48,419 nt of DNA from the NCBI GenBank assembly GCA_947626435.1, contig CANQSB010000025.1:1-48419 (forward strand). Direction: 5' to 3'. The notes beneath the pieces are model-generated. The model was not told the origin of the DNA and did not search any database. It saw nothing but the letters and a program-made list of their open reading frames with translations. The position numbers and the translations under genes are program-made. Below are positions 16,303 through 45,728 of this stretch, in pieces. Position 1 is the stretch's first letter. The number at the start of each line of letters is the position of its first letter. This DNA comes from an uncultured Lachnospiraceae bacterium. Its GTDB lineage: Bacteria; Bacillota; Clostridia; Lachnospirales; Lachnospiraceae.

Positions 16303-16444
16303 GGCATTTGTAAAACTCTATTCGTCAACATAGAATTTAGGCAAAATATATAAAATAAGCGGTGTCTTGCGCGGTATCCGGCCGCGTTTTTGTATATTTT
16401 GACTAAATTCGGGCAGTTTAGAAAACATTTCACAATTACCTATT
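16303..16444. repeat. Palindromic repeat copy A, upstream of hprK
   Basis: About 142 bp. The left arm contains CATAGAATTTAG and CAAAATATATAAAATAAGCG; the right arm contains GTATATTTTGACTAAATTCG, which mirrors it. The ends are GGCATTTGTAAAAC and TTTCACAATTACCTA. The element can fold into one long imperfect hairpin with a GC-rich tip. It lies 34 bases upstream of the hprK start. Three further full copies are at 32651, 36161 and 45558. The rest of the gap to 16597 holds only the terminator. Confidence 0.9.
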
Positions 16445-16537
16445 ATTATTTCAGTAACAAGCTTTATGTGCGTAGTGTGTTATCTATAATATATATTAGC
16501 ATATTAATTAAATAGTTGCCACACTTTTTAAACAGGA

Positions 16538-16577
16538 AAATAAGGCAGGGACACCGATTTGCCTCCCCGCCTTATTT
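16538..16577 (-). terminator. Terminator of the minus-strand chemoreceptor gene
   Basis: AAATAAGGC and GCCTTATTT pair, with further G-C pairs towards the loop. On the minus strand the stem lies 20 bases after the chemoreceptor stop and continues into T-rich sequence. Confidence 0.7.
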
Positions 16578-16597
16578 CTTGCACATTATAACTCTTC

Positions 16598-19027
16598 TTA
16601 CTCCTCAAGTCTAAAGAACCTCATATCCTCCTCAAGCCGCGAAGATATCGACAGCAGTGTTTGTGACTCCCTCATCAGCTCTGATATCGTGCTGTTGAGC
16701 TGCTGCATTGACGAAGCCGTTTCTGTGGTTGATGCCGCATTTTCCTCCGATATTGCCGAGAGGTTCATCATTATATGAGATACCGTCGAGCTTACTTCAT
16801 TACATTCAACTATCGCTTTCCTGATGACTTCCGTCTTATCCCTTGACTGTGAGATGCCATTGTTCACTATTTCAAACTGGTGCTGCGTCTTGATGAGGTT
16901 TTCGTTCTGCTCGTTTGTCGCCCTGCCTACCTCATCCATTATATCAAGCGTTTCCTTGAAATCGTTTATCAGGTTCGATATTACCTTAAAGATAGTGTCC
17001 GCCGAGCTGTTTGACTGGTCCGCAAGCTGCTGTATCTCCGACGCGACTACCGCAAAGCCTCTGCCCGCCTCGCCCGCGCGCGCCGCCTCTATGCTCGCAT
17101 TCAGTGAAAGCAGGTTCGTCTGGTCCGCGATTGACGAAATGAGCGAAACCGCCTCCTCTATTTCCTTTACGGAATCATTTGTCTTTGATATCTGGCTTGC
17201 GACCTTATGTATGCTGTCCGTCATGTGCGTATTTGACGCGCTAAGCTCGTTCAATATGGAAACCACGCCGTCGCTCGCGTTCTTCATGTCAATCGAAGTC
17301 TCATCAAGCTCCGCGATGTCCGTATTCATGCTTTCCATAAGCTCGCCAAGATGCGTTATCTCGCTTGTGGAGGTCTCGACATCGGAAGCCTGCGTGACCG
17401 CCCCCTGAGCGATTTCTGAAATTGAGCTGTCTATCATCTCCGAGGTCTGCCCCGAGCTCTGCGACATTTGTTCGAGCTCCGCACCGCTCTTGTTCAGCTC
17501 GATTCCGCAGTTTATTACATTGCGTATTACCTCGGCAAGCTTATCAGTCATCGCGTTTAGCGACGCGCCAAAACTGTCGAACTCATCGCGGTTGTCGGTG
17601 CGCGCCTTTACCATGATGTTTCCCTGTGAAATCTGCGAAAGCGTCCCCTCAAATGCCTTGATGCTCCTCTGTATGGACGCTATCACAAACACTGTAAGCA
17701 GCACCACAAGCACAGCTCCGATTATAAATACCGCATATATGAGCACCGACATCATCATCTTCTGCTGCGCCGTCTGTTCCTCTATCTGTTGCCGCACGCT
17801 TGCCGTATCGTTTGTAAGGCTCGTGTTAAGCTCGTTGTTTTCGCCCTTTATCGCAAGTATCTCGCCGTCATACTCAACTATCGCCTGCTGCGCCTGTATT
17901 TTGTCGTCAAGCTCTGACGCGATGGCGTCTTTCAAATCCTGCTGCATTGAATAATACTGCGACATTTCCTTCATCTCGCCAAGTATCGCCGAGATGTCCT
18001 CCGGGTATGTGCCCGTATCGCTTCCCTCCGCCACAAGCTTGTTGTACTCGCCAAAAAGCGTGTTTGCGTCCGACAGCTTGCCTTTAAAATTATACTTGTC
18101 GTTTAATGCCGACGAAACGCTCACCGACGGAGTCTGCGTATCCTCAAAATATATGTCTACGGAAAAGTTTTCGTAGTCCATATTGTTGTAGTCCTTTATG
18201 GGAAGAGTGAGCCTCGCTTCCTGCGCGTTGCCGCCGGTATTTACAAACGCGCCCTTAAAATACACGCAATCCTCGCCGTTAAAGGTCGAAAGCTTCAAAT
18301 CGGTAAACGAATCGCCCATTGAATTTGCAAGCGCCTCCGTATCAAAGCTGCCTATATCCACTTTAGTATCATCAAATTTTATGTTCACCACGTTTACGTC
18401 GCCCACATAATCAACGCCCGTCGCCGTAACGCGCACTATGAGCGTGTCGCGCCTGCTCGTCGCCGGAAGCGTATTGCTGAAGGTCGCCTTGCGGTACGTC
18501 TTGCCGCCTATCTCGACCGTCTCAAGCGTGGAGAGATCCGTTTCCACCCAAAAAATATCTGACCAACTATTTTCGTTGTCAAGCTGCGATATTGACGCTC
18601 CCAAAGCCTCGTCGCCCGCAAGATAAGCCTCATACAAGCCCTCACCCTGCTTAAAGCCTCGCGATGCCAATATTTCTCTAAGCTCATCAGTATTTGCCGA
18701 CACAGCGGAAATATTCTGCGCCACCCTCTCAAGGTCATCTCTGTAGCCCTGTCCCTTGCTGCTCTCCAAAGCCGCGGCTGCCGCATCGTTCATCGAACTG
18801 AGATTTGACGTGATTTTGTCATAATGGCTAAGGTCCAAGTCATACAGAAAAGTTATCTCCTCCGCCTTATTCTCATACTGCATCAGGTTGATGTTGTTTA
18901 TATTATTCAGCACCTGATTGTTTGAGTTGTTGCTGTTCATGATATAAATGCCCGTTATGCCGAGAATTATCGTGCATATAATGGAAACCGCCCCAAGAAT
19001 AACAAGTTTTGACTTTATACTGTTCAT
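16598..19027 (-). CDS. Methyl-accepting chemotaxis protein with large outside domain
   Basis: The 809-residue receptor starts with a membrane segment (about residues 7-30), followed by an outside region of some 390 residues that I cannot match to a named sensor fold. A second membrane segment (about 427-450), a HAMP linker and the coiled-coil signalling domain follow. The tip motif [20 protein letters not shown] is intact, so it should couple to CheA and CheW and steer flagellar rotation. GGAG lies nine bases before the ATG. It is divergent from another chemoreceptor at 19306. The 278-base gap between them is AT-rich, with two TATAAT-like boxes but no clear -35 partners. Confidence 0.92.
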
Positions 19028-19305
19028 TTGCGTAATCTCCTTCCTTACAGCATTTTGTCATCTTCTTTTATCTACATATTTCTTACTTATGCTTTTTATA
19101 TTATGATTTATTTTTAAATTGCTCTATAATATTAATGCTTTTTTTATCAAAAAAATGTCTTTCGTTTGCAAAACCCGTTTTTTGTGCATTAACACGATAA
19201 GCGACGACAAAAAAGCACATTAATATATTGATTTTTGCTAATTATAATAGTAAAATTAATAAGTGACACTATAATAATGTCAAACAAAGATAAGGAGTGA
19301 ACCAA

Positions 19306-21105
19306 ATGGAAACAGAAAAACGCGGAAAGAAAAAAAGCCTGACTGCCGCTATAATGACGCTGTGCCTGATTGTTACGGCAATAACGGCACTATGTATAGG
19401 CGCAAACGCAGTCATATCAATCAAAAGACTTACAAACGACTCTTATGCCACCTATGAAAACGCAATGAACGAGGGCTACAACACCGAGATTAAATCTCAA
19501 GTGCAGAACGCCATTTCCGTACTGCAGGGCGAGTACGACAAGTATATGGCGGGCGAAAAGACCGAGGACGAGGCCAAGCTTGCCGCCAAGGAAACGGTCC
19601 GCGCCATGCGCTACCGCGACGACCAGAGCGGATATTTCTGGATTGACGACACCGACTATATCCTTGTTATGCACCCTATCCTCACTGAAAACGAGGGCAA
19701 CAACCGCTATGACCTCACCGACCCGAACGGTGTGAAAATCGTCCAGTCAATCCTGCAGGTATGCCAGAGCGCCGAAAAAGGTGGCTACAATGAATTTTAT
19801 TTCACCAAATCGGACGGCGTGACCGTAGCGCCAAAGATTGCCTACTCACAGATTTTTGAGCCTTGGGGCTGGATAATTTCCACAGGAAACTACATAGATG
19901 ATATTGAAGCCGATATGGCAGGCGTAAAGCAGCAGCTTGACTCTACATATCACTCTCTCCTTCTCAGGGTTGACATAGTGTTTATAGCAGTACTGGTATT
20001 TTCGCTTATACTCGCATACCTCTACAGCAAACAGCTTGTAAAGCCTCTGCAGAACATGCGCGCGTTTGTGGATAATTTCGCGACGGGCGACCTGACGGGC
20101 TCAATCAGCATCAAGACAAACAACGAAATCGGGCAGACGGCGGATGCCATTATGAAGGCTCAAAGCAATACGCGCAATCTCCTTCAAAATATCAACGAGG
20201 TAGTCGACGGCGTGACAAATGCCCTTGAGCAGTTTGAAAAAATGTTCGGCAATATGCGAAGCTCCATTTCAGAGGTTTCAACCGCGGTTGACTCTATCGC
20301 AAGCAATGTATCCTCACAGGCTTCATCGACAAACAGCGCTTCGACCGAGGCGGATGTAATGGGCGGCAGCATTGACAAGACGGGACAGGAAGTAAAGACG
20401 CTTGACGAAAACGCCAACGACATGAAGCAGCTCAGCGAGAAGTCAATGAATACGCTAAATCAGCTCATCGCCGCAAACGACAAGACGCGCAGCAACATAG
20501 CGGCAATGCATGAACAGACGGAAGCGACAAATAAATCCGTACAAAAAATACAGATGGCAGCCAACCTCATAAACGAAATCTCAGACCAGACGAGCCTCCT
20601 CTCACTCAACGCCAGCATAGAGGCGGCAAGAGCCGGCGAATCAGGCAGGGGGTTTGCAGTAGTTGCCGACGAGATAGGCAAGCTTGCGCAGCAGTCCACC
20701 ACCTCAGTCGAGGAGATAAGCCAAATAGTAGACGACCTTCTCAGGAACGCTTCGCAGTCGGTTGAGATTATGCGCGAGATAAGCGATGCCGTCGGACTGC
20801 AGGTAGACTGCATATCCGATACGCAGCAGAGCTTCAGCCAGCTCTACAAGGAGCTTGACAACTGTGTGACGGCGGTAAGAATCATAGACAACATGACGGG
20901 CGATATCGAAAAGCAGCGCTCCGGCGTTACGGACGCGCTTGACACTCTCAACAATCTTGCTCAGGACAACGCCACAATGACCCAGGAAACGGCAGCCATG
21001 TCGGCTGAGCTTTCACAGCTTGTAGAGGATTCAGGCAGCATTGTAGACGAGCTTGAGCAAAAGGTTCGCACGCTTGTAGATGACATTCATATGTTTAAGC
21101 TGTAA
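19306..21105 (+). CDS. Methyl-accepting chemotaxis protein with single Cache sensor
   Basis: The 599-residue receptor has an N-terminal membrane segment (about residues 14-35). Its outside domain contains [20 protein letters not shown] and [14 protein letters not shown], typical of the sCache_2 fold that binds small organic acids in several receptors. A second membrane segment (about 223-243), HAMP and a full signalling domain with [20 protein letters not shown] follow. ATG 19306 has AAGGAG nine bases upstream; the GTG three codons earlier overlaps that site. A terminator shared with degV follows. The ligand is unknown. Confidence 0.93.
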
Positions 21106-21163
21106 TTTACGGACATTTTCCACAAATAAATTAATTAAAAAATCAGCAAAAAGAGAGCAGCAA

Positions 21164-21199
21164 AAAAGAAGCTCCGGCATTTTCACCGAAGCTTCTTTT
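21164..21199. terminator. Bidirectional terminator between chemoreceptor and DegV genes
   Basis: AAAAGAAGCTCCGG pairs with CCGAAGCTTCTTTT with one mismatch around an 8-base loop. The A/T runs allow it to end both converging transcripts. Confidence 0.85.
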
Positions 21200-21213
21200 A
21201 TTTGCTATTTTAT

Positions 21214-22116
21214 CTAAAATTTCGCCTTTCTGATGATTCCGAAGCCAAGCGGATATGGTCCTGTGTGTACGCTTATAGTCGCACCTATCTGATATATCGG
21301 AAGCTCCTCCTCGGTAATGGAATATCCCTTTGAGTTCAAAAAGCTGACCGCGCCGTCCCTGAATACCACAGCCTCGTCCCTGTCGTAGCCAAAACCAACA
21401 GCCAGACTATAGTCGGAACAGTCGGCATTTAATTCATTCAAATACTCAAGTAACAGCTCATATACCTTATCAAGCGATTTTTTACGGCTTCTGGCTATGC
21501 CCGACGGGAATATCTCCCCCTCCTTCAAGGTAATCAGCGGGCGTATGCCAAGCACAGAGCCTGCAAGCCCCGCAAGCTTCCCTATCCTGCCGCCATGCTT
21601 TAGGTAGTCTATATTTCCTACGGTAAAGAATATCCTGCCCGTACTCTTTATAGCCTCAAGCTCACTGACAGCCCTGTCATAATCTACGCCTGCCGCATGC
21701 AGCTTTGCTGCCTCCAAGACATATAAGCCCTGCAGCACAGTATTGATAGTCGCATCAATAACCGTAATGCGCGCGTCTGGAAAGCTTTCAAGCACTATCT
21801 CCTTTGCGCCCAAAGCAGACTGCATGGAACCGCTGAATTTCGTCGTAATACAGATACAGATAATCGCCTTATTATCCTTGACGATAGGCGTAAAGACATC
21901 TACATAATCCTGAACCGACGGCATCGAAGACTTTGGAAACGTCGTTGGTTCTGCCACCATCTTGTCATAAAATTCCCTGATAGGCATCTCGACTATTTCC
22001 TTTTCATACTTTTCACCGTCAAACGACACATAAAACGGCACCACTGTGATGTCTTTCTGTCTGCACAGCTCCGTAGGCAAATCGCATGAACCGTCTGTTA
22101 CTATTTTATACTCCAT
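21214..22116 (-). CDS. DegV-family fatty acid-binding protein
   Basis: The 300-residue protein opens with YKIVTDGSCDLPTEL and contains TTFPKSSMPSVQDY, ICICITTKFSGSMQSA and LKHGGRIGKLAG. These are the conserved pockets of DegV/FakB proteins that hold a fatty acid and present it to a fatty acid kinase (FakA). No kinase gene is seen nearby, so the partner must be elsewhere. The length is typical. It converges with the plus-strand chemoreceptor and lies 92 bases downstream of a LacI-type regulator. Confidence 0.92.
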   Translation of the reverse strand: MEYKIVTDGSCDLPTELCRQKDITVVPFYVSFDGEKYEKEIVEMPIREFYDKMVAEPTTFPKSSMPSVQDYVDVFTPIVKDNKAIICICITTKFSGSMQSALGAKEIVLESFPDARITVIDATINTVLQGLYVLEAAKLHAAGVDYDRAVSELEAIKSTGRIFFTVGNIDYLKHGGRIGKLAGLAGSVLGIRPLITLKEGEIFPSGIARSRKKSLDKVYELLLEYLNELNADCSDYSLAVGFGYDRDEAVVFRDGAVSFLNSKGYSITEEELPIYQIGATISVHTGPYPLGFGIIRKAKF

Positions 22117-22208
22117 GTATGTTGGACCTCTCTTTTAATTCTTTTATCGGCACAACGCGCCAATCATGCTTCGCCGAATGAACGACGCAATCCGCCATGT
22201 CCGGCATA

Positions 22209-23225
22209 TCAGTTTAATATCGGATACGCCACTATAGTCGTAAACGTGATGTCCATGCTCGGATTCTTCGCCCTGTCCATCACCGACTTCACAAGGCGCT
22301 TGCCAAGCTCCTCCATCCTGACCTCCACCGTCAGAATATCCTTCTTGAAAAAGTCCTTTTCGATAATGTTGTTGAAACCCGTAATCACTATCGACTGGAC
22401 ATATTTGGGGTCTTTCTGCAAAAGCGCGAGCGCGACGTTTTTTGCCACCTCGTCATCCTCGCATATTATGGCGTCAGGCATATACGGAAGCTTGTTTATG
22501 ACCTCCTCGACCATGGCATAGCTAAAGCTTAGCTGATTCGACGGATGAGTAAATTGAAGCGCATCGTCAATGTTTATAAAATTCTGGTTGCAGGCATTCA
22601 AAAAGCCGATATACCTTGCCTGCACCATGCGCGAGCCCTCCGCATAGCCTATGTACGCAAGCTTCGTACAGCCCTTATTATTTATCACGTAATTCGTCAT
22701 TTTGTTCATCGAATAAAAGCCGTCCACATTTACGACGTCGCCAAGCTCTATATACTCCTGCGCATTGACGGGACTGTTGAAAAACGTAAGCGGAAGCCCT
22801 GTCTTGCTTATGCCCTTGACAAACCTTATCGGAAATACGCTCAAGAAGATGATGCCCCTTACATCATCGGCTATGAGCCTGCACACTCCCTCTCCGTCAT
22901 AGTCCTCGTCATCCACCACATAAAGCTGCATGCGATATCCCTCATCGCTTACGGCCGCGCTTATGCCTGCCAGTACCTTGTTCCAGAATACCGACTGGTT
23001 GTGATTTGACAGCACAAGGATTACTCCCGTATTTGGCCTCCTGCAGCTTGTTTTGACCTCATCAAGCAACCGCTCGTCAAGCTTCGCGTACCCCATCTGC
23101 CAAGCCTTCCGAACTACCGCCTGCTTAGTCGGCGGCGACACCAGACCGCCGTTTAGAGCCTTCGCAACTGTATTCCTGCTAAGCCCTAATTCTGCCGCTA
23201 TGTCTTGAATTGTTACCTTTTTCAT
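22209..23225 (-). CDS. LacI-family transcriptional regulator
   Basis: The 338-residue protein begins with a LacI helix-turn-helix, VTIQDIAAELGLSRNTVAKAL. The hinge region follows, then a periplasmic-binding-protein-like sugar-sensing domain to the C-terminus. ATG 23225 has AAAGGAGG upstream. The in-frame extension to 23279 is unlikely. Its targets cannot be read from the window. The alarmone synthetase gene is divergent and 367 bases away; no sugar transport genes are adjacent. Confidence 0.88.
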   Translation of the reverse strand: MKKVTIQDIAAELGLSRNTVAKALNGGLVSPPTKQAVVRKAWQMGYAKLDERLLDEVKTSCRRPNTGVILVLSNHNQSVFWNKVLAGISAAVSDEGYRMQLYVVDDEDYDGEGVCRLIADDVRGIIFLSVFPIRFVKGISKTGLPLTFFNSPVNAQEYIELGDVVNVDGFYSMNKMTNYVINNKGCTKLAYIGYAEGSRMVQARYIGFLNACNQNFINIDDALQFTHPSNQLSFSYAMVEEVINKLPYMPDAIICEDDEVAKNVALALLQKDPKYVQSIVITGFNNIIEKDFFKKDILTVEVRMEELGKRLVKSVMDRAKNPSMDITFTTIVAYPILN

Positions 23226-23500
23226 GCTTAACCTCCTTTTACACAATTGGAACTCCCCTAAACTATCCGCCGGACGCAAACAGATATTTTTTTTATTTTA
23301 ACACAATTTTTTCATATTAGGTATATTATTTTCATAAAATATATAAAATTTTGATAATAATACGTAATTACTTCAAAATCCTAATCACATGTTGTCATAT
23401 CAGCCGCAGCAGCAACGCTCTTTTTTCGTCCCGTCATTTTAAATAAGCTACAAAAATTATTTAAAGATTGTAATTTTTTTGTTAAATTTACACATTCTTA

Positions 23501-23529
23501 TTGATTTTACCGCCCATATAAGCTATAGT
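23501..23529 (+). promoter_or_regulatory. Promoter of the small alarmone synthetase gene
   Basis: TTGATT (23501-23506) and TATAGT (23524-23529) are separated by 17 bases, close to the vegetative consensus. The rest of the 367-base gap (23226-23592) is AT-rich and shows no gene. Confidence 0.7.
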
Positions 23530-23592
23530 TTAATTATAGTAGTTAGCTAAACCTGTACCATAGGCTCTAATCAGGAACAGGAGGTACTTAAT

Positions 23593-24306
23593 TTGATTGC
23601 TAAGATAAACGAAATCCAGAACGAACTGCTAAAAGAAATGATGGCTGCAAAGGCCGTCACGTATGTCCCGACGATAAATACCGAACATATCCCCCAGGAG
23701 GAATACGACCATCTCGTAGAGCCTTACAGGGAGGCTATGATGCGGCTTGAAGTGCGCATGAACGGCTTAAACGAGGACTACAGAAAAAAATACCGCGACT
23801 ATCCGATACATAATATTCAGGCGCGCATAAAGAGCAGAAAGAGCATTGAAAAGAAGCTCTCATACAGGAATCTGCCCGTCACGGCATATTCCGCCAAGGA
23901 TAACCTGACGGACATTGCTGGCATACGCATAATCTGTTATTTTATTGAAGATATATTCAGCATATTATCACTCGTAAAGGCACAGACCGACCTGCTTATT
24001 TTAAAGGAAAGCGATTATATCCATTACCCGAAGTCAAGCGGCTACAAGAGCTACCATATGGTGCTCGGGGTGCCGGTATACCGTATCGAGGGGATGCAGT
24101 ATTACCCTGTCGAGATACAGTTTAGGACATTATCCATGGACTTTTGGGCAAGTATGGAGCACCGTATCTGCTACAAAGGCGATACGCCGGAAGAAACTAC
24201 AGATGATTTCAGAAAATACTCTGCGGAGCTGTCCGAGATGGAGCGGCGTATGAAGCATCTTCTCGACGAAGTGCGTCGCGACAATCCGCAGGAGCCTATG
24301 CAATGA
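23593..24306 (+). CDS. Small alarmone synthetase (GTP pyrophosphokinase family)
   Basis: The 237-residue protein has the RelA/SpoT synthetase core: RIKSRKSIEKKL, DIAGIRIICYF, the GTP-binding KSSGYKSYHMVLGVPVY, and VEIQFRTLSMDFWASMEH. It lacks a hydrolase (HD) domain and the regulatory domains of full-length Rel, as in YjbM/YwaC-type small synthetases. It makes (p)ppGpp from ATP and GDP/GTP. The start is TTG 23593 with AGGAGG eight bases upstream. A weak start codon may keep its level low. A strong terminator follows the stop. Confidence 0.92.
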   Translation: MIAKINEIQNELLKEMMAAKAVTYVPTINTEHIPQEEYDHLVEPYREAMMRLEVRMNGLNEDYRKKYRDYPIHNIQARIKSRKSIEKKLSYRNLPVTAYSAKDNLTDIAGIRIICYFIEDIFSILSLVKAQTDLLILKESDYIHYPKSSGYKSYHMVLGVPVYRIEGMQYYPVEIQFRTLSMDFWASMEHRICYKGDTPEETTDDFRKYSAELSEMERRMKHLLDEVRRDNPQEPMQ

Positions 24307-24313
24307 TTTAGCT

Positions 24314-24352
24314 AAAAACGTTACCCACATGTCAGGCGTGGGTAACGTTTTT
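24314..24352. terminator. Bidirectional terminator overlapping the DUF1934 3' codons
   Basis: A perfect stem, AAAACGTTACCCAC/GTGGGTAACGTTTT, ends in TTTTTT. One arm encodes the last residues (NVTHA) of the minus-strand DUF1934 gene. Confidence 0.9.
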
Positions 24353-24787: not shown

Positions 24788-24840
24788 TATTTCCTCTCAT
24801 TCCGCGCCATCGTGTGCGCCAATTATTTGCTTATCCGACG

Positions 24841-25065: not shown

Positions 25066-25126
25066 TCCGCCCAACTCCTTTTTCATTATACCTAATCAAA
25101 GTATGGACGGATTTTCACGAAAATAT

Positions 25127-32616: not shown

Positions 32617-32650
32617 AATCAATCGCCTTCCTATATAAAATAAATATTTA

Positions 32651-32795
32651 ATCATTTGCGAAACTATATTCGACAACATAGAATTTAGACAAAATATATA
32701 AAATAAGCGGCGTCTTGCAGCTAGCTGCACCTAGCTGCTTTTTATATATTTTGGCTAAATTCGGACGGTTTAGAACACATTTCGCAATTACTAAT
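32651..32795. repeat. Palindromic repeat copy B, upstream of metG
   Basis: About 145 bp. The ends are CATTTGCGAAAC and TTTCGCAATTACTAAT. Inner arms are CAAAATATATAAAATAAGCG and TTTTTATATATTTTGGC. The tip is a GCAGCTAGCTGC palindrome. The element lies 34 bases upstream of the metG start, at nearly the same distance as copy A from hprK. Confidence 0.9.
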
Positions 32796-34960: not shown

Positions 34961-34966
34961 GGGCTT

Positions 34967-36160: not shown

Positions 36161-36304
36161 TAGGCATTCACAAAACTCTATTCGACAACATAGAATTTAG
36201 GCAAAATATATAAAATAAGCGGCGTCTTGCGGAGCACCTAGCCGCGTTTTTATATATTTTGACTAAATTCGGACGATTGAAAACACATTTCGCAAACACC
36301 TTAT
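36161..36304. repeat. Palindromic repeat copy C, upstream of rubrerythrin
   Basis: About 144 bp. The ends are TAGGCATTCACAAAAC and CGCAAACACCTTA. Inner arms are CATAGAATTTAG with CAAAATATATAAAATAAGCG, mirrored by TTTTTATATATTTTGAC. It is very similar to copy A, including the CGCGG tip. The remaining 245 bases to the next gene (36305-36549) show nothing recognisable. Confidence 0.92.
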
Positions 36305-36549
36305 TTTGATACATTTAATTATACTTAAATTTCACTTTTCTGCAAGCCTTTAATTAATTATCCGCCGACATTATTTCCCAATCTAATATATGCAGTTTAC
36401 CACATTTTTATTTACAACAAACCAAACCATAAGCAATCCAAATAAAAAACTAAGCGGAACATCACAATACATCATGACATCCCGCCGTCTAGTCTTATTG
36501 AAAATTTATGTGTTATTTCCGGTTACGCATACAAGCTGCCGCCTATTTT

Positions 36550-37173: not shown

Positions 37174-37284
37174 AATTAATTTTACTCCTCCATATTATGT
37201 AATTTCCTATAAGACCTTGTTGATTATAACATTTTATGCGCCATTCGTCAATCAATGCAAGCCCCCGCAGCCTTGTTATATTTA

Positions 37285-38103
37285 TTATTTTGCCAAGTCA
37301 TTCTCAAGCTCCCGCGAAAGCACTACCATCTCCTTCAGCACCTCCTGTATGCCGCTTATGCTGCCGCTGTGCTGCTTTGCAAAACTACTCGCGTCCTTCA
37401 CTGAAGTAATTATGGAAGCAAGATGCTCCATAATAGTATGAAGCGTATTTTTTATCTCCGTAGCCGAGCTGCCGCTGTCATTCGCAAGCTTCCCCATCTC
37501 CGTAGCGACCACCGCAAAGCCCCGCCCGTTCTCACCGCTTCTCGCCGCCTCTATAGAAGCATTGAGCGCCAGAATATTTGAACGCGACGCGTTGCTGCTG
37601 ATTTTATTTACTACCTCGACCGCATTGTGCACATCACTCTCCACACTGCTCGTCATCGAATCCATCTCTTCGAGCATTTTAAATAAACGCTCCATCCCAT
37701 CCACAAGCTCCTGTAGCGAAGTGCTGACATTTCCCACAGACTTCTGGAATTTATCGGTTATCTCCGCCATCTGCTCACGCACATCCACCGAATATGTACA
37801 TGTAATGCAGCCCACCACTTCACTGCCATCCTTAATCGGCACAAGCTCGCCCTCAAACGCCTCGCCCATTACTTCCTTTGCCAGACGGTTATGCTGTGCA
37901 CGCCCTGTCCTAAGCACCTTGTCAAGCATTCCACTCGGGTCATTAAAACGCTGCCCCACGCTCATTATAGGCTTTTCGCCATCCGGAATTGAATACCCGA
38001 CAACCACGCCGTCACTGTCAATCACAGTGATATAGACATCCTTCTCAAACATCTGCCTTATCGTCGGTAAAGCGTCAACATAATACTCTAACTGCTGATT
38101 CAC
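37285..38103 (-). CDS. Soluble chemoreceptor-like protein
   Basis: The protein has no membrane segment. Residues about 20-120 look like a PAS/Cache-type sensor ([31 protein letters not shown]-like strands). They are followed by a short signalling coiled coil with [20 protein letters not shown]. It should bind CheA/CheW in the cytoplasm and respond to an internal signal. GTG 38103 is preceded by AAGGAGG at eight bases, so I reject the long in-frame extension to 38244. The signalling arm is short, about 150 residues. Confidence 0.82.
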
Positions 38104-38259
38104 AATACATACCTCCTTACTATCTGCACATGCCATCAAACACCGCATCCCAAAATCCATACCCATATTATAATACCACACTTTTTTCCCACACTCAACA
38201 ATCTTTATTGTCGAATACTGAAAAATTTTGAAAACAAGCGGCATCAGGGAAAAACCTAA

Positions 38260-38426
38260 GCCCGAGCAGGGTTATATATCCCATGAAGACCCTTGGGAAG
38301 CGTCGGCACTTAGCGAAGCAAGCTGTAAAAGCGTAACTCCTTTTACAGCGCCGCTGAGCTTAGTGTCCGCTACGCTTCCCACTGAGCGCAAGCGGGTCTG
38401 AATGGGATATATAACCCTGCTCGGGC
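38260..38426. repeat. 167-bp hairpin element with perfect 25-bp inverted ends
   Basis: The left end (38260-38284) begins GCCCGAGCAGGG and the right end (38402-38426) finishes CCCTGCTCGGGC. They are perfect reverse complements over 25 bases. Further pairs lie inside: TGGGAAGCGT/ACGCTTCCCA and GCTGTAAAAG/CTTTTACAGC. The whole element folds on itself. No coding frame is visible. It lies between the DEAD-box helicase stop and the soluble chemoreceptor start, in a 358-base gap that holds nothing else. Confidence 0.93.
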
Positions 38427-38461
38427 GCCCCCTTCAACACATATGTATATACGCAAAAAAC

Positions 38462-40078
38462 CTATTTCGCATTAGCCGGCTCAATATTAATCGCCTTCCC
38501 CTTAATCTTAACATTCTTCATAGCACGCAGCACCTCCAACGCATTCTCCTTAGGCACCTCCACAAATGTATACTTGTCATACAAATCAATCGCCCCAACA
38601 AGCTTCCCGGAAATATTCGTCTCATTAGCAATAGCCCCCAAAATATCCTTAGGCTTAACCTTCTGCGCCTTCCCGATATTGATAAACAAACGCGCCATAC
38701 CTTCCTCCTCAGCGCCCGTATTATCAAAGTCAAAACCAGCCTCGCCAGCCTCACTCTCCTGCCCGTTCGCATCGTTAAGCTGCCCCATATACATCTTCAA
38801 AAACGCCGCCGCTATATCCATCGCCGTATAATCCGACTCGTTCACATACTTCTCCACAGTATTTATCATTGAAGTCAAGTCCTCGTCCTCAATAATATTC
38901 CCAATCCTGTCCATAATCTTTTCAGTCTTAATCTGGTTCACATCATTGAGCGATGGCACAGGCATAGCGTAAATCTTCGTCTTGCAGTAGCGCATAAGCT
39001 CCTTAATCTTGTAAACCTCCTTACCCCTCACAAAGGTAAACGAACGCCCCGCCTTACCCGCGCGCCCCGTCCTGCCTATACGGTGCACATAATACTCGTC
39101 ATCCTGCGGAATATCGTAATTAAAAACAGCCTCAACATCATCAACATCAATACCGCGCGCCGCCACATCAGTAGCTATCAAAATATCCGTCTTTCCATTC
39201 CTGAAGCTCTTCATCACGCGGTCGCGCTGCGCCTGGCTCATATCGCCATGCAGCCCCTCCGCAAAGTAGCCCCTGCCCTTAAGCACCTCCGCCAAGTCAT
39301 CAACCATCTTCTTTGTATTGCAGAACACAAGCGAGAGCTTCGGCTCATAAAAATCAAGCAGACGCGTCAGCACCTCCACCTTGTCCTTGCGCTTCACATC
39401 AAGATAATACTGCTCAATCATAGGCACAGTAAGCTCTTTCTTAACCACCTTGATAAACTTGGCATCCTCTTTCTGATAGTTTTTCGTGATGTCAAGAATA
39501 GCCTTTGGCATGGTCGCTGAAAAAAGAATAGTCTGCCTGTCCTGATTAGGCACATACTCCAACACAGTCTCTATATCCTCGCGAAAGCCCATATTCAGCA
39601 TCTCGTCAGCCTCGTCAAGCACGATGGTGTCCACATAATCGCAGCGAATCGTCTTGCGGCGCAGATGGTCCATCACGCGCCCCGGAGTGCCTATAATTAC
39701 CTGCGTACCCTTCAGCGCCCTAATCTGCTTGCTTATATCCTGCCCGCCATATATGGGAAGCACCTTCACGCCATGCATATATTTAGCAATCTTCCTAATC
39801 TCCTCCGCCGCCTGCACCGCAAGCTCCCTCGTCGGACACAAAATCAGCGTCTGCGGATGCTTTACATCCTTATTTTTATTTACCTTTTCAAGCACAGGTA
39901 TGCCAAACGCCGCCGTCTTACCCGTACCGGTCTGCGCCTGCCCGATAATGTCATAGCCCTCCATAGCCACAGGTATAGCCTGCGCCTGAATAGCGGACAT
40001 CTCCTCAAACCCCATCTCACGCACGCCGCGCAAAATTTCCTTACTCAAATTCAAATCCTCAAACCTAATCGCTTCCAT
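38462..40078 (-). CDS. DEAD-box RNA helicase with DbpA-type RNA-binding domain
   Basis: The 538-residue protein has the full DEAD-box set: AQTGTGKTAA (motif I), PTRELAVQ (Ia), TPGRVMDHL (Ib), VLDEADEML (II), FSATMP (III), ATDVAARGIDVD (V) and HRIGRTGRAGK (VI). A C-terminal DbpA/CsdA-like RNA-binding domain starts near residue 465 (RLFINIGKAQKVKPKDI). Such helicases help ribosome assembly and RNA turnover, especially in the cold. AAGGAAATT precedes the ATG. It is monocistronic by spacing. Confidence 0.94.
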   Translation of the reverse strand: MEAIRFEDLNLSKEILRGVREMGFEEMSAIQAQAIPVAMEGYDIIGQAQTGTGKTAAFGIPVLEKVNKNKDVKHPQTLILCPTRELAVQAAEEIRKIAKYMHGVKVLPIYGGQDISKQIRALKGTQVIIGTPGRVMDHLRRKTIRCDYVDTIVLDEADEMLNMGFREDIETVLEYVPNQDRQTILFSATMPKAILDITKNYQKEDAKFIKVVKKELTVPMIEQYYLDVKRKDKVEVLTRLLDFYEPKLSLVFCNTKKMVDDLAEVLKGRGYFAEGLHGDMSQAQRDRVMKSFRNGKTDILIATDVAARGIDVDDVEAVFNYDIPQDDEYYVHRIGRTGRAGKAGRSFTFVRGKEVYKIKELMRYCKTKIYAMPVPSLNDVNQIKTEKIMDRIGNIIEDEDLTSMINTVEKYVNESDYTAMDIAAAFLKMYMGQLNDANGQESEAGEAGFDFDNTGAEEEGMARLFINIGKAQKVKPKDILGAIANETNISGKLVGAIDLYDKYTFVEVPKENALEVLRAMKNVKIKGKAINIEPANAK

Positions 40079-40244
40079 AATTTCCTTATACCTATCCCTT
40101 CCACAAATTTAATAACCATTGCCACAAATCAAGACATTAAAAAACTGCATCAATCCCACAGTGATTAATACAGCTCTTTAAATCAACTTATTCAAGTATA
40201 TTTGCTATAAGCTAAAAAGTCAATACCATAATCAAAAAACTTAA

Positions 40245-41666
40245 TCAAAAAGCTTCAACGCCCTTCGTAATATCCTCCAGCTTCCTAAGCAGCACATTGA
40301 CATCAATAGGCTTTGACAGGAAATCGTTCATCCCACTCTCAATAGCCTTATCCCTGTCCTCCTTAAAGGTATTTGCCGTACATGCATAAATCGCCACCTT
40401 ATGCGCGTCGCCCCTGTCAAGCCCCCTGATTTCAGACGATGCCTCGCACCCGTCCAAAACAGGCATATGCATATCCATAATGATGGCGTTTATCTCGTCC
40501 TCCGCCGATTTTTTGAATATCTCCACAGCCTCCCTACCGTCATGCGCCCTCATGGTCTTATAGCCAAGCTCGTGCAGAATGTCCATGATAATCTCAGCGT
40601 TTATGTCATTGTCCTCCGCTACCAGAATATTTACCGTCTCTCCATTGCCCAGATTCTTTATGCTTGAAACATCATCATCTATGCCCAGAATATTCTTCAC
40701 ATATTCCGAATCGACTATCACAGCCTGTTTCTTTATATTAATAAACATCTGCGCCAGAAAAACTAAGACGACCGTAATTGCCGCAAAGGTCACGACATTA
40801 AGCACCAGAAAATGAGTGCCGTAATGCGTCAAGGTTTCCTTCGGCACTTCGACCAGAAAATACCAATTTGTCATAGGTATCGTATAAAGCGCGGCTGCCT
40901 TATCCTTACCGCCGCCATCCGTATACTTGAAAAAATATTCGCCATTCTCCAGCGCCTCGCTTTTTATCTCCTCCGCGCTCTCTTTCATATCCGCGTTTTC
41001 AAGCCGCACAAAAAAATTGTCGTCGTACTGCGCATTTAAAACATTTTCCACATACACAATATAATTGCCATCGCTGTCAAGTATCGCGCTGCTTTCCTCT
41101 CGTTCAAAGCTGTCAAGCTTGTACTTTCTCATAATAGAAGCGACATTATTTGTACTGACAATGGTGTCACATTCCACCCCGCCAATGCTTACGCCGTCCA
41201 CATCAATGCCATAAACAAGCGTTCCCTTATTCAAAAATCCATCGTCAAAATCATACCTTGCGGCAAACCGCCCCTCATTTCCCTTTTTGCGTATTATGTC
41301 ATCCAGCTTGTGCCCCGAGGCGTCGCTGATTATTTTGTCCCCGCCGTACAGCCTGCCATCGCTGCCAAGCAGATACAGACCGTCAAACGAACTCGTCCTC
41401 TCCTCCAGTTCAATACGACTTTGCAGCTCCTCCGTCGTCGCTATATCGCACAGCTCCATTCGCTCAGAAATATTTTCAAGTTCATTCCAGTTTAAATCAA
41501 GATAATTCCTTATGCTCTGTATATCGTGCCTTGCAAGCTCCCCGATACTCGCGTAAACCCTGTCAGAAACCGCATTGTTCATCAACAGAAAATATATATA
41601 AATAACAATCAATATCGCACTCACCGAAACTATCAATGCCGGAAACAAAGGCTTGCGCATATTCAT
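40245..41666 (-). CDS. Membrane-anchored Cache sensor fused to a receiver domain, no kinase core
   Basis: The 473-residue protein has a membrane segment near residues 8-30, an outside region of about 250 residues resembling a double Cache sensor, and a second membrane segment near 285-312. A short linker and a complete receiver domain follow: acidic pair in LVAEDNDIN, phosphorylated Asp in IIMDMHMPVLDG, Thr in YACTANTF and Lys in LSKPID. The histidine-phosphoacceptor and ATPase domains that normally lie between are absent. A partner kinase is therefore needed. The start ATG follows the rsmI stop directly (TAGATG), with its ribosome binding site inside rsmI. Confidence 0.85.
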   Translation of the reverse strand: MNMRKPLFPALIVSVSAILIVIYIYFLLMNNAVSDRVYASIGELARHDIQSIRNYLDLNWNELENISERMELCDIATTEELQSRIELEERTSSFDGLYLLGSDGRLYGGDKIISDASGHKLDDIIRKKGNEGRFAARYDFDDGFLNKGTLVYGIDVDGVSIGGVECDTIVSTNNVASIMRKYKLDSFEREESSAILDSDGNYIVYVENVLNAQYDDNFFVRLENADMKESAEEIKSEALENGEYFFKYTDGGGKDKAAALYTIPMTNWYFLVEVPKETLTHYGTHFLVLNVVTFAAITVVLVFLAQMFINIKKQAVIVDSEYVKNILGIDDDVSSIKNLGNGETVNILVAEDNDINAEIIMDILHELGYKTMRAHDGREAVEIFKKSAEDEINAIIMDMHMPVLDGCEASSEIRGLDRGDAHKVAIYACTANTFKEDRDKAIESGMNDFLSKPIDVNVLLRKLEDITKGVEAF

Positions 41667-42536
41667 CTATTCCAACTCCCCTCTTACGCTTTCTCCCACA
41701 GACAGCAAATGCTGATAGACCTCGCGCTTGGAAATCCCCCTGTCCTTAGCCACAAGCTTCATAGCCTCCTTGCGCCCGATGCCCTTCTCCTCATAAATAC
41801 CCATATGCTCCTCTATGGAAATGCTCTGCCAGTCAGCCTCATGCTCGCGCTTGAGCTCATCATGGCTTTTCCCCTCCAACACAATAACATACTCGCCTCG
41901 CGGCTCCTCGCTCTCATACATGGAAAGCGCCCCCTGGAGCGTCGTCGGCAAAATAGTCTCAAACTTTTTTGTAAGCTCCCTGCATAGCGTCGCTCGCCTG
42001 TCTCCAAGCGCCTCATACAACTCCCCCAGCGTCCTTACTAAATGATGCGGCGCTTCATACAGAATAATAGTCCTCGTCTCATTTTTCAAGTCTTCAAGCA
42101 CAGCGCCTTTAGCTTTCTTATCGGCAGGCAGAAAGCCCTCAAAGCAAAATCTCCTCGTACTAAGCCCCGAAAGCGTCAGCGCCGTTATGCATGCCGCCGC
42201 TCCGGGCAGCGAAGTCACAGTGATTCCCGCCTCATAACATAGCTTCACAAGCACCTCACCCGGGTCTGAAATCGCAGGCGTACCCGCGTCCGTTATAAGC
42301 GCTACATTTTTTCCGTCATTCAACTGTCCAATCAAATATTTGGCCTTCTCTACCTTGTTATACTCATGGTAGCTCGTCATCGGCGTATGTATATCAAAAT
42401 GATTCAGCAGCCTGATACTGTTGCGCGTATCCTCAGCAGCTATCAAATCCACCATGTTCAAAGTTTCCGCCACCCGAGGCGTCATATCCCCCAAATTGCC
42501 AATCGGCGTAGCACACAAATACAATTTCCCCGCCAT
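41667..42536 (-). CDS. rsmI: 16S rRNA (cytidine1402-2'-O)-methyltransferase RsmI
   Basis: RsmI methylates the ribose of C1402 in 16S rRNA. The protein opens with KLYLCATPIGNLGDMTPR and continues with AEDTRNSIRLLNHF, ALITDAGTPAISDPG and SLPGAAACITAL, the AdoMet-binding signatures of this SpoU-unrelated tetrapyrrole-methylase fold. Its length of 289 residues is normal. GGGGAAAATGAG precedes the ATG. The stop is coupled to the start of the receiver-protein gene. The neighbours yaaR, holB and ricT match the Bacillus yaaR-holB-yaaT-yabB-yabC order. Confidence 0.95.
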   Translation of the reverse strand: MAGKLYLCATPIGNLGDMTPRVAETLNMVDLIAAEDTRNSIRLLNHFDIHTPMTSYHEYNKVEKAKYLIGQLNDGKNVALITDAGTPAISDPGEVLVKLCYEAGITVTSLPGAAACITALTLSGLSTRRFCFEGFLPADKKAKGAVLEDLKNETRTIILYEAPHHLVRTLGELYEALGDRRATLCRELTKKFETILPTTLQGALSMYESEEPRGEYVIVLEGKSHDELKREHEADWQSISIEEHMGIYEEKGIGRKEAMKLVAKDRGISKREVYQHLLSVGESVRGELE

Positions 42537-42673
42537 CTCATTTTCCCCGTTTATACACAGACTTTACAGCAAAACTTGCCGACAAACCTAAAATCCGTCT
42601 GCCGAATTCTAACCGTTTACAGCATGACTATCTGGCTTTCTCAACATCTAAAGCCTCTTTCCGTTCTCAATAC

Positions 42674-43492
42674 TTAATATCCGAATTTCTCACAAATCTC
42701 ATCCGTATATACATTAGGCGCCTTATAAACTATGAGCGGCTTTTCCACAGTCATGCGCGATTTGCCGCCCCTGCAGCCCTCTATAAGCACCATATTAGGC
42801 TCCTTGTCAACATACGGATACACAAGCCTCATGCGCTTCGGCTCAAGCTTATACCTCGTCATAATGTTTATAATCTCCGCCAGCCGAAACGGTCTGTGTA
42901 CCATGAAAAAGCTCCCGCCGGTCTTCAGCAGTTTTGCCGCGTTTCTCACCACATCATCAAGCGTACACAAAATTTCATGCCGAGCTATCGCCTTGGGCGC
43001 ATCAGGATTAGTCAGCCCATGCTCGCCAATCATATACGGCGGATTGGAAGTCACTACATCAAAAGAAGCAGCCTTAAAAATCAATTCTGCTTCTTTAATA
43101 TCTCCCGTCACTATATCAATTTTATTCTCCAAGTGGTTCAGACAGACGCTCCGCCTTGCCATATCCGCACTCTCAGCCTGTATCTCAAGCCCCGTCAAAT
43201 GCGAAGCCTGTGTCTTTGCCTCAAGCAGAATAGGAATTATCCCAGTTCCCGTCCCCAAGTCAAGCACATTCCCGCCGCGCCTCACGCGCACAAACCCGCT
43301 AAGCAGCACCGCGTCCATTCCAAAGCGGAATTTATCAGGGCTCTGGATAATCCTGTACCCATTCCTCTGCAAATCATCAATGCGCTCATTCTCTTTAAGA
43401 AAGGACTCCGCCGAACAGCTTTTCATAGAAGCCTCGCTCCTAAATGCCTCCTCCCCAAAAGCCTCAGTTGTCGTCAAGCTTTGATTTTCCAT
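42674..43492 (-). CDS. tRNA1(Val) adenine-N6-methyltransferase family protein (YabB/TrmN6-like)
   Basis: The protein has an AdoMet-binding motif VLDLGTGTGIIPILL and the adenine-N6 motif TSNPPYM. By family it modifies A37 of tRNA-Val or a related adenine. ATG 43492 has AGGAG upstream and lies within the last codons of ricT (29-base overlap). A later start at residue 33 (MKSCSAES) is possible, because the first 40 residues are variable in the family. Position between ricT and rsmI agrees with yabB in Bacillus. Confidence 0.9.
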   Translation of the reverse strand: MENQSLTTTEAFGEEAFRSEASMKSCSAESFLKENERIDDLQRNGYRIIQSPDKFRFGMDAVLLSGFVRVRRGGNVLDLGTGTGIIPILLEAKTQASHLTGLEIQAESADMARRSVCLNHLENKIDIVTGDIKEAELIFKAASFDVVTSNPPYMIGEHGLTNPDAPKAIARHEILCTLDDVVRNAAKLLKTGGSFFMVHRPFRLAEIINIMTRYKLEPKRMRLVYPYVDKEPNMVLIEGCRGGKSRMTVEKPLIVYKAPNVYTDEICEKFGY

Positions 43493-44393
43493 CCTGCTTC
43501 TCCTGCTTTTCGAGTTTTTCAAGCTCTTTTAGCTCCTTAAGCTCCTCGTCTGTCATCCCGTCATTTTTGTCGCGCTTATGACGCTTCTTAAAGCGAAGCT
43601 GCTCCACGCTGTACTCGCGTATTTCCTTTTCGTCATCAGCCTCAACCAACACCTTGACAAGCTGGCGCAGGACATTCACGCTGTGCACTTCGCCTTTCAG
43701 TCCATCGTCCGTAGTCACGAAATCACCCACATTAGGCAGCTTTCTGTTTAAATATTCGTAAGTATCCTCCTCGTGCTTCAAACAGCACATAAGCCGCCCG
43801 CACACACCGGAAATCTTTGTAGGATTGAGCGACAAATTCTGCTCCTTTGCCATCTTGATGGACACAGGCACAAACTCCGAAAGATGCGAATGGCAGCAAA
43901 GCGGTCTGCCGCAGATTCCTATTCCTCCAAGTATTTTCGTCTCGTCGCGCACACCAATCTGACGCAGTTCAATACGCGTCTTAAACACCGAAGCCAAATC
44001 CTTTACAAGCTCCCTAAAGTCAATCCGCCCGTCCGCCGTAAAGTAAAACAGCACTTTGTTATTGTCAAAGGTATACTCAGCGTCAATAAGCTTCATCTCG
44101 AGCTTATGCTTCTGTATCTTCTCCAAACAGATTTTAAATGCCTCTTTCTCCTTCGCCTTGTTTGCCGCCTCCTGCTCCATATCGCGCTTATTGGCTACGC
44201 GCAGCACAGGCTTTAAGGGCTGCACCACCTTGTCGTCTTCAACTTCCTTTGGATTGCCTACTACCGTACCATACTCCACGCCCCTTGCAGTTTCCACTAT
44301 CACATGGTCTCCACGCTTTACATCAAAGTCAAGCGGGTCAAAAAAGTAAATCTTTCCCGCCGTCCTAAATCTTACTCCTATTACCTTTTTCAT
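43464..44393 (-). CDS. ricT: RicT (YaaT) PSP1-domain regulator
   Basis: The 309-residue protein has the PSP1 domain with its cysteine-rich segment: GICGRPLCCHSHL followed by GVCGRLMCCLKHE. These cysteines bind Fe-S clusters in the RicA-RicF-RicT complex, which works with RNase Y in mRNA maturation and affects sporulation and competence in Bacillus. Its C-terminal tail is highly charged (KELKELEKLEKQEKQDGK). It lies after holB with a 40-base gap and overlaps the next gene. RicA and RicF genes are not visible nearby. Confidence 0.93.
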   Translation of the reverse strand: MKKVIGVRFRTAGKIYFFDPLDFDVKRGDHVIVETARGVEYGTVVGNPKEVEDDKVVQPLKPVLRVANKRDMEQEAANKAKEKEAFKICLEKIQKHKLEMKLIDAEYTFDNNKVLFYFTADGRIDFRELVKDLASVFKTRIELRQIGVRDETKILGGIGICGRPLCCHSHLSEFVPVSIKMAKEQNLSLNPTKISGVCGRLMCCLKHEEDTYEYLNRKLPNVGDFVTTDDGLKGEVHSVNVLRQLVKVLVEADDEKEIREYSVEQLRFKKRHKRDKNDGMTDEELKELKELEKLEKQEKQDGKSKLDDN

Positions 44394-44433
44394 ATCTATA
44401 AACCACCCTTCTTAAATTAAGCAAAATCTATTT

Positions 44434-45456
44434 TCAGCCTGCTTTCATATCCATAAACATAAGCTCCATAGTGAGGTCAAAGCTGACATTTGCCGCAATC
44501 CTGCTCCTTGCCCTGTCTATCGAGCGTATAATGCGCTCTATCCCCTCATAGCTGTAAAACGCCGCCGCCCTGCTTATCTCACGCTGCTCATCCTTAAAAA
44601 TAATATGCCGCGTATCCCTGCACGCTTTATATAATAACACATCTCTGTACCAAGTGAAACATAAATCAAGATAATCGTCTATGTCAAGTTTTTCCTTCTT
44701 CTTTTCCTCCGCTATATGCTTCACGCGCTCTGCTATCTGATTAATCTCAAGGCTGGAAATTTTCTTCATGGTATCCAGGACTTCAGATTTCATATTGTCA
44801 AAATCCTCATTTGAAGCAAGCTGCACAGCGCGCCCTACATTCCCCCGCGCAAACGAAGCGCAGATGCCGGCTCTGTAATCAGGTATATTTGCCTTTGCCA
44901 TCAGATAATTCTTTATCGCCTCATCAGAAACAGGCTTGATGTTCAGCACTACGCAGCGGCTCAAAATAGTGGGAAGCATTGCCTCCACCCGCGTCGCAAG
45001 CAGCAAAATTACAGCATATTCGGGAGGCTCCTCAAGCGTCTTCAGGAGCGCGTTCTGCGCCTGTACATTCATCTTCTCCGCCTCATCCACAATGTAAATC
45101 TTACGGCTGCTGCTGTACGGCTTTATTACGATGTCACCGTTTATCTGCTGTCTGACATTGTCCACCGAAATGACATTCGGCTTGTCATGCCCTACATAGA
45201 TTATATCAGGATTATTCCCATTCATTGATTGCCTGCATGTCCTACAGCAATTGCAAGGCTTGTCACCATCCGCCTCGCACTGCAAAGCCCGCGCGAAAAT
45301 ATCCGCAAGCATTTTTTTTCCTGAAAGCTTCTCGCCCTGTACCAGATAAGCATGCGATATTTTATTATGTCTGACTGCATTTTTTAAATTATCAGTAAGC
45401 TGCGACTGTCCCAGTATGTCACTCCATCCGTCAGCCATATAACTTTCTTCTCCCAT
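44434..45456 (-). CDS. holB: DNA polymerase III delta' subunit HolB
   Basis: HolB is part of the clamp loader. The 340-residue protein has the conserved start ILGQSQLTDNLKNAV, a SHAYLVQGEKLSGKK P-loop-like segment, a zinc-binding cysteine group CNCCRTC, YIVDEAEKMNVQAQNALLKT and LEEPPEYAVILL, as in DnaX-related proteins. The P-loop is degenerate, normal for delta'. ATG 45456 with GAGG upstream is used; ATG 45438 is an alternative. Repeat D lies 100 bases upstream. Confidence 0.94.
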   Translation of the reverse strand: MGEESYMADGWSDILGQSQLTDNLKNAVRHNKISHAYLVQGEKLSGKKMLADIFARALQCEADGDKPCNCCRTCRQSMNGNNPDIIYVGHDKPNVISVDNVRQQINGDIVIKPYSSSRKIYIVDEAEKMNVQAQNALLKTLEEPPEYAVILLLATRVEAMLPTILSRCVVLNIKPVSDEAIKNYLMAKANIPDYRAGICASFARGNVGRAVQLASNEDFDNMKSEVLDTMKKISSLEINQIAERVKHIAEEKKKEKLDIDDYLDLCFTWYRDVLLYKACRDTRHIIFKDEQREISRAAAFYSYEGIERIIRSIDRARSRIAANVSFDLTMELMFMDMKAG

Positions 45457-45557
45457 AAAAATCCTCTATACCATCTATGATAATTTATTTTCGCCCTCTG
45501 CCAGTCTAATAATTAAACATCGGCAAAGCTATTTACTCACAATTACCCACTAACAAT

Positions 45558-45728
45558 AATCATTTGCAAAACTCGATTCGACAACATAGAATTTAAACAA
45601 AATATATAAAATAAATGATATATTGCATAGCACCAATATACTGTATCTGTTATGTGCAGTACATTAACACGATTTTTATATATTTTGACTAAATTGAGAT
45701 TATTAAGAACATGTTTCGCAATACTTAA
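45558..45728. repeat. Palindromic repeat copy D, upstream of holB
   Basis: About 171 bp, with the same arms as copies A-C (CATAGAATTTAAACAAAA and TTTTTATATATTTTGAC). Ends are CATTTGCAAAAC and TTTCGCAATACTTAA. The central loop is longer and AT-rich, unlike the GC-rich tips of A-C, so it may be an older or distinct variant. Confidence 0.88.

What the first reader, a model, noticed from the sequence alone, without database searches (positions are those of the whole stretch)
16303..45728. Family of 140-170 bp palindromic repeats placed just upstream of genes
Four full copies (16303-16444, 32651-32795, 36161-36304, 45558-45728) share arms, ends and a long hairpin fold. All have the same orientation relative to the downstream minus-strand gene: hprK, metG, rubrerythrin, holB. 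Copies A, B and C lie 31-34 bases from the start codon. Ends such as TAGGCA...TGCGAAAC would fit a non-autonomous mobile element (MITE) with TA target sites. The fixed position would fit a leader or promoter role instead. I know of no named family that matches.
Basis: partly seen in the sequence, partly recalled or inferred. Interest (0 to 1): 0.75.

Follow-up and report, generated by a model that had tools for sequence, protein, structure and literature searches.

The report
Mini-transposons inserted beside ribosome-binding sites
The repeats are short non-coding hairpin-shaped transposons, apparently cut-down relatives of a longer gut-bacterial transposon, that tend to lie a fixed short distance in front of the ribosome-binding sites of genes.

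Summary
The four repeats are real. They belong to a large family of non-autonomous mobile elements (MITE type) in a Lachnospiraceae MAG. I paired 94 two-ended copies of 55-264 bp. The ends are TAGGTAATTGCGAAA...TTTCGCAAATGCCTA. Target duplications peak at 10 bp, not TA. The metG copy is absent from its sister species' orthologous site. The window holds a fifth copy (12421-12480) in the opposite orientation; over the fetched copies, 30 left ends and 41 right ends face the nearby start codon.

The fixed position is real. Edges lie 20-50 bp from a start codon in 49 of 62 testable elements (17.2 expected), with a Shine-Dalgarno (SD) motif about 16-18 nt out.

I also found a likely parent: ~1.77-kb insertion sequences (ISs) in other Lachnospiraceae with the same left/right-specific ends, 10-12-bp duplications and a DUF772/DDE transposase. 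Their right end lies 15-23 nt from an SD motif at 18 of 19 sites; their left end at 0 of 16. The position is therefore best explained as a target preference shared with the IS, not a promoter or leader role. An RNA effect of the hairpin remains possible but untested.

The parts
16301..16442 (-). Copy A, 142 bp, right end facing hprK, 32 nt from its ATG
32649..32794 (-). Copy B, 146 bp, right end facing metG, 32 nt from its ATG; site empty in the sister species G017
   Evidence: empty site at L168:2055-2061
36161..36302 (-). Copy C, 142 bp, right end facing the rubrerythrin gene, 30 nt from its ATG; target duplication ATTTTAATACAT/ATTTTGATACAT (11 of 12)
45557..45727 (-). Copy D, 171 bp, with a decayed nested hairpin in the tip; about 100 nt upstream of the holB-like ORF 44434-45456; no visible target duplication. 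Not among the 94 counted copies (its region was not fetched)
12421..12480 (+). Not among the 94 counted copies
8108..8150 (+). Probable degenerate copy F (one good end only), 30 nt from the start of ORF 7403-8077; right boundary uncertain

Best explanation
The repeats are miniature transposons (MITE type). Their 15-16-bp terminal repeats, with a left and a right version, match those of a ~1.77-kb IS with a DUF772/DDE transposase found in other Lachnospiraceae. They were probably mobilised in trans by such a transposase. Insertion duplicates about 10 AT-rich bases, and sites are chosen so that a Shine-Dalgarno-like purine motif lies about 16-20 nt beyond one end. The usual result is that the element sits just upstream of an intact ribosome-binding site, about 30 nt before the start codon. 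Shown here: matching ends, duplications, an empty site, copy number, spacing to SD and start codon, and the same spacing for the full-length IS. Inferred: that this transposase moved these copies, that the spacing reflects sequence recognition rather than selective survival, and that the hairpin is carried in the mRNA.
For: 94 two-ended copies in 81 fetched regions of the own genome. Exact duplications of 9 bp or more in 16 of 94, against about 0.5 by shuffled flanks. Identity between flanks peaks at k = 10 (0.474; 14 of 118 with at least 9 of 10). Copy B's site is empty in G017. Start-codon distance 20-50 bp in 49 of 62 testable elements of G000 and G017 together, 17.2 expected under uniform placement in the gap, maximum 30 in 5000 simulations; an earlier version on G000 alone gave 35 of 66 within 20-40 bp, 12.4 expected, maximum 25 of 2000. 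SD 4-mers 12-21 nt outside an edge in 77 of 118 elements, against 7 to 17 of 118 in five other 10-nt windows. IS copies with ends TAGGTAATTGCGAAAC / TAGGCGTTTGCGAAAC, against MITE consensus TAGGTAATTGCGAAA / TAGGCATTTGCGAAAC. IS right-end flanks carry an SD 4-mer at 15-23 nt in 18 of 19 sites (17 of 19 in the window 12-21 fixed beforehand), left-end flanks in 0 of 16. IS target duplications of 10-12 bp in 6 of 9 two-ended copies.
Against: No transposase of this IS family was found in the fetched parts of G000 and G017; the best hits there are about 29% identical, and the whole genomes were not searched with it. In G002 and G010 the number of end-like sites is not clearly above the reversed control (5 against 2, 5 against 11), so the IS rests on paired ends around a transposase, not on end counts. 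The IS points its right end at the SD motif, whereas the MITEs do so with either end (30 left, 41 right); this is unexplained. 34 of 118 elements have no SD plus start on either side. Copy D does not fit. Survival of harmless insertions could produce part of the pattern. Of 22 sites compared with the sister species, one is cleanly empty, one ambiguous and 20 occupied, so recent movement is rare.
Confidence: 0.82

Rival explanations
1. MITEs with only a general AT-rich target preference; the position near start codons is what survives selection, because insertions into promoters and genes are lost.
For: The target duplications are 83% A+T (22 duplications with at least 8 of 10 matches) and the region -21 to -40 is mildly AT-rich (0.65-0.69, 144 genes). 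Elements are mostly either 20-50 bp or 130 bp and more from starts, few between, which would fit avoidance of promoters.
Against: The spacing to the SD motif is sharp (4-mers peak at 16-18 nt). The peak is present among copies with intact duplications (11 of 20 with a start-codon neighbour, against 59 of 85 for the others). The IS shows it on one end only, 18 of 19 against 0 of 16. Of 34 elements without SD plus start, 10 still have an SD-like motif at 8-28 nt, against 1 and 1 in the next two windows, though some of these are probably missed starts. Two IS sites, L281 and L266, may be intragenic yet carry the motif at the same spacing; this rests on open frames and is weak. Selection alone would allow larger distances upstream of the SD.
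Confidence: 0.25
2. A cis-regulatory RNA leader (riboswitch-like or attenuator) conserved upstream of certain genes.
For: Strong hairpin, position before start codons, most compared sites shared by the two sister species.
Against: No Rfam family at gathering score in the window apart from tRNAs, and only hits far below gathering score over copy C. Different genes, both orientations. Target duplications, empty site. The tips differ between the species at shared sites. Present in 2 of 24 genomes of the genus searched.
Confidence: 0.03
3. The elements are mobile but have been co-opted: the leader hairpin acts on the mRNA (RNase III site, decay barrier or weak terminator), and this is why so many are kept.
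For: Precedent: RNase III cuts Correia-element transcripts (PMC10969869, section 4.1 read). The palindrome would form a hairpin in either orientation. One terminator-like site in copy B, on the strand opposite to metG.
Against: No expression data. Some sites hold a minimal element in one species and the full hairpin in the other (L105 and L099 in G000 against 143 nt in G017). The position is explained without a function.
Confidence: 0.25

Closest known systems
Correia elements (Neisseria MITEs)
   Same: Short MITE, >120 copies, mostly just upstream of genes, transcripts cut by RNase III (PMC10969869, sections 2, 3 and 4.1 read)
   Different: Unrelated host; the TA target duplication usually given for Correia is recalled, not looked up; here it is 10 bp, with a fixed distance to the SD motif
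bcr repeats of the Bacillus cereus group
   Same: Repeat family of 100-400 bp, bcr1 in up to 130 copies, restricted to one group (PMC6542083, passages seen)
   Different: Mobility tied to TTTAT repeats there; here terminal inverted repeats, 10-bp duplications and a matching IS
IS1182-type insertion sequences
   Same: Transposases of the matching IS hit NCBIfam NF033551 (IS1182) at 64-74 bits
   Different: Far below the model's cut-off of 270 bits; best called IS1182-like
RUP / BOX / SPRITE repeats of Streptococcus pneumoniae
   Same: Small repeats that cluster and insert into one another (PMC10969869, section 3.3 read)
   Different: No sequence relation was tested; position relative to SD motifs is not described in the sections read

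Membership tests
MITE (miniature inverted-repeat transposable element) | Length under 500 bp, no transposase | tested here: met
   94 copies of 55-264 bp
MITE (miniature inverted-repeat transposable element) | Terminal inverted repeats | tested here: met
   Consensus TAGGTAATTGCGAAA / TAGGCATTTGCGAAA over 118 elements, which were chosen by their ends
MITE (miniature inverted-repeat transposable element) | Target-site duplication | tested here: met
   Peak at 10 bp, 14 of 118 with at least 9 of 10; exact 9 bp or more in 16 of 94 against about 0.5 expected
MITE (miniature inverted-repeat transposable element) | Presence/absence at orthologous sites | tested here: met
   Copy B empty in G017; only 1 clean case among 22 compared sites
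MITE (miniature inverted-repeat transposable element) | Autonomous element with the same ends | tested here: met
   IS copies in G002, G010, Butyrivibrio pCY360, a Roseburia plasmid and IMG/VR contigs; none seen in the fetched parts of G000
MITE (miniature inverted-repeat transposable element) | Mobilisation in trans by that transposase | not testable with these tools
   Needs an assay
IS1182 family (the matching IS) | NCBIfam NF033551 score at or above the curated cut-off | tested here: not met
   63.6-74 bits for five open frames against a cut-off of 270
IS with DUF772 / DDE transposase | PF05598 above cut-off | tested here: met
   45.7-53 bits against 23.1 in 5 of 5 open frames; DDE_Tnp_1 above cut-off in only 2 of 5
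Known structured RNA family | Rfam match at gathering score over the copies | tested here: not met
   Only tRNAs in the window

The most novel reading that the evidence does not exclude
A Lachnospiraceae IS family and its MITEs choose their target by the Shine-Dalgarno sequence itself (AT-rich 10-11 bp, then the SD core about 6-8 nt on), the full IS with its right end towards it. This would be a transposon system addressed to ribosome-binding sites, possibly through DNA sequence, possibly through something bound there, that rewrites the 5' leaders of many genes while keeping them translatable.
Probability: 0.6. Interest if true: 0.8.

Novelty: new variant of a known kind. Interest (0 to 1): 0.68.

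Why it matters
MITEs near genes are common, but a fixed distance to the SD motif, shared with the full-length IS in other genera and one-sided for the IS, points to a target rule that can be tested directly. It would explain how a bacterium tolerates about a hundred insertions, many close to start codons, including those of metG and hprK, and gives a natural set of leader replacements. It also warns that hairpins conserved in position upstream of genes need not be regulatory.

Tried and rejected
Promoter role: promoter-like sites in copy C's region do not exceed shuffles (1 found, mean 1.6); copy B's region has 4 against a mean of 1.8, sd 1.5; either end of the MITE can face the gene. Known RNA family: none. 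Carriage of the MITE by phages or plasmids: no match to one type-1 copy; no exact match of one arm pattern in viral contigs. The tip module AATGTACTGTATCNNAGATACAGTACAT as an independent mobile element: the 18 further sites fetched for this check lie inside element tips (2 of the 18 failed my arm filter and were accepted by eye), as do the 18 found in the earlier G000 loci (2 of them failed the filter likewise). I first thought G017 nearly lacked this module; one search corrected it (13 palindromic sites, each listed on both strands). Five DDE_Tnp_1 hits in the own genome: no end site with 2 or fewer mismatches in the stretches around them; similarity to the IS transposase about 29% at two of the five places. 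A long element in G000 between matching ends: I saw no pair of opposed ends 1.3-2.4 kb apart among the 100 end sites listed of 188 (by eye). Order-wide search: 2 of 392 genomes match, one of them G000 itself and the other (G352) by 23 nt only; only two candidates per genome were scored there.

Limits: gene starts come from my own ORF and SD heuristic, not a gene caller; elements were found by similarity to early copies, so divergent ones are missed and some of the 94 pairs may be wrong (for example L097, whose right end lies further out); G000 and G017 share sites, so pooled counts are not independent; the IS flanks were collected by end patterns and transposase similarity, mostly in IMG/VR contigs. 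The paper searches cover an open-licence library only; ISfinder was not available. Three searches for SD-targeted insertion sequences returned 0 papers each.
Full report
Observation. The four repeats are present. With boundaries set at the terminal TA they are A 16301-16442, B 32649-32794, C 36161-36302 and D 45557-45727. Copy C folds at -51.7 kcal/mol, z = -7.1. A scan for the 15-base end found a fifth, 60-base copy at 12421-12480 and a probable remnant at 8108. The fifth copy turns its other end to its gene, so the shared orientation of A-D is not a rule.

Family. The window is contig C25 of a 3.70-Mb genome in 98 contigs. A search with copy C gave 86 matches, of which I count about 42 distinct places because the palindrome matches twice. 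I fetched 81 regions covering 106 hits from three searches. Models of the left and right ends paired into 94 elements of 55-264 bp; copies D and E lie outside the fetched regions and are not among them. Tip types by regular expression: t1a 22, t2 19, mod2 16, t1b 14, minimal 9, mod3 6, t2b 5, other 3. Further copies turned up later. The family is in 2 of 24 genus members searched (G000, G017), and beyond them only a 23-nt match appeared in 392 genomes of the order. The tool may leave out the window's own record.

Mobility. Exact duplications of at least 9 bp flank 16 of 94 elements, against about 0.5 for shuffled flanks. On 118 elements with strict boundaries (88 from G000, 30 from G017), identity between flanks peaks at 10 bp. 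The metG copy has an empty orthologous site in G017, where flanks at 91% identity meet. Of 22 compared sites, 1 is cleanly empty, 1 ambiguous (L097) and 20 occupied, so most copies compared predate the split of the two species.

Tips. At 8 of the 20 occupied sites the tip label differs between the species. I aligned six of these (L099, L116, L121, L122 and two in L090) and a further site, L105: there the interior differs while the flanks, and mostly the outer ends, correspond. The other two (L074 at 1987, L135) were not aligned. Gene conversion among copies and deletion of hairpin cores are my inference.

Position. Edges lie 20-50 bp from a start codon for 40 of 77, 11 of 15 and 20 of 31 start distances in three sets, and 51-100 bp for 2, 1 and 0. 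The sets are not independent: G017 shares sites with G000. Under uniform placement in the same gaps, 17.2 of 62 would fall there and 49 do. The end facing the start is left in 30 and right in 41 cases. Measured without gene calls, an SD 4-mer begins 12-21 nt outside an edge in 77 of 118 elements, against 9, 15, 17, 7 and 13 of 118 in the windows 0-9, 22-31, 32-41, 42-51 and 52-61.

Likely parent. A genus-wide search for the end gave paired ends in G002 and G010, although the number of end sites there is not clearly above the control. Between the ends lie transposase remnants. The left end of these IS copies is identical to the MITE left end over 15 bases. The right end differs from the MITE right consensus (TAGGCATTTGCGAAAC) at one base in G002 and two in the G010 copy L246. 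The left/right difference is thus shared. Open frames of 490-516 codons, counted stop to stop, occur in Butyrivibrio proteoclasticus pCY360 (two copies), Roseburia sp. 831b and IMG/VR contigs; the one in L259 runs to the contig end. Of five such frames scanned, 5 of 5 hit DUF772 above cut-off, and the IS1182 model only at 64-74 bits against a cut-off of 270.

Target of the IS. The script tallied 39 end flanks: an SD 4-mer starts at 12-21 nt in 19 of 39, against 2, 4, 2 and 1 of 39 in the windows 0-9, 22-31, 32-41 and 42-51. Of the 21 right-end rows I dropped two (L282 at 1193, a 3-mismatch match on the opposite strand at the same end; L262 at 2386, which abuts another IS copy). Of the remaining 19, 18 carry an SD 4-mer at 15-23 nt and 17 in the window 12-21 fixed beforehand; L269 carries none. 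With all rows kept the count is 18 of 21. Of the 18 left-end rows I dropped two that are right ends under a left label (L259, and L266 at 2923); of the remaining 16 none carries the motif (0 of 15 without L262 at 2371, which also abuts another IS copy). In 14 of the 19 right-end sites an ATG follows behind the motif at 26-36 nt (read). Six of nine two-ended copies have a duplication of 10-12 bp; L246, L258 and L263 have none, and the L269 pair is 3650 bp apart. L281 and L266 may be intragenic and still show the motif at this spacing. That would speak for recognition of sequence, but it rests on open frames only, and frames open to the edge also occur at sites with a normal start (L279, L280).

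Interpretation. A MITE family sharing the ends and the target geometry of an IS is best read as that IS's non-autonomous derivative. Insertion just upstream of the SD leaves it intact, which would help tolerance. For copy B a promoter-like site lies upstream of the insertion, so the hairpin may be in the metG leader RNA; this is inference. Unexplained: the one-sided orientation of the IS against the free orientation of the MITEs, and copy D.

Comparison with the literature. The MITE review PMC10969869 (sections 2, 3 and 4.1 read) describes the general features met here and the Correia precedent for leader effects. Passages of PMC6542083 describe bcr repeats. Searches for SD-targeted insertion sequences returned no paper in an open-licence library; this is weak evidence of novelty.

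Noticed in passing
window 38260-38426: A separate palindromic repeat of about 170 bp with more than ten further places in the sister genome G017 (arms)
   Followed up: no
L096, L097, L108, L110, L122: A ~110-nt module (TAGTGTACTGTACCGTT...AACGGTACAGCACACTA) nested in the elements at TA or CTAG, apparently a second mobile element
   Followed up: partly
L065, L074, L077, L089, L100, L129: Tandem pairs of related hairpins, often with different inner arms (GAAATATAC type) and decayed ends, mostly away from start codons
   Followed up: partly
G007 loci L241-L245, L252: IS-like ends TAGGTATTTGCAAAACG about 100-185 bases from the ends of eight contigs, suggesting a multi-copy relative of the IS that breaks the assembly; L245 encodes a stretch 63% identical to the transposase N-terminus
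   Followed up: partly
L239 (G010 C15): A truncated IS copy beside an inverted duplication that encloses a radical-SAM gene
   Followed up: no
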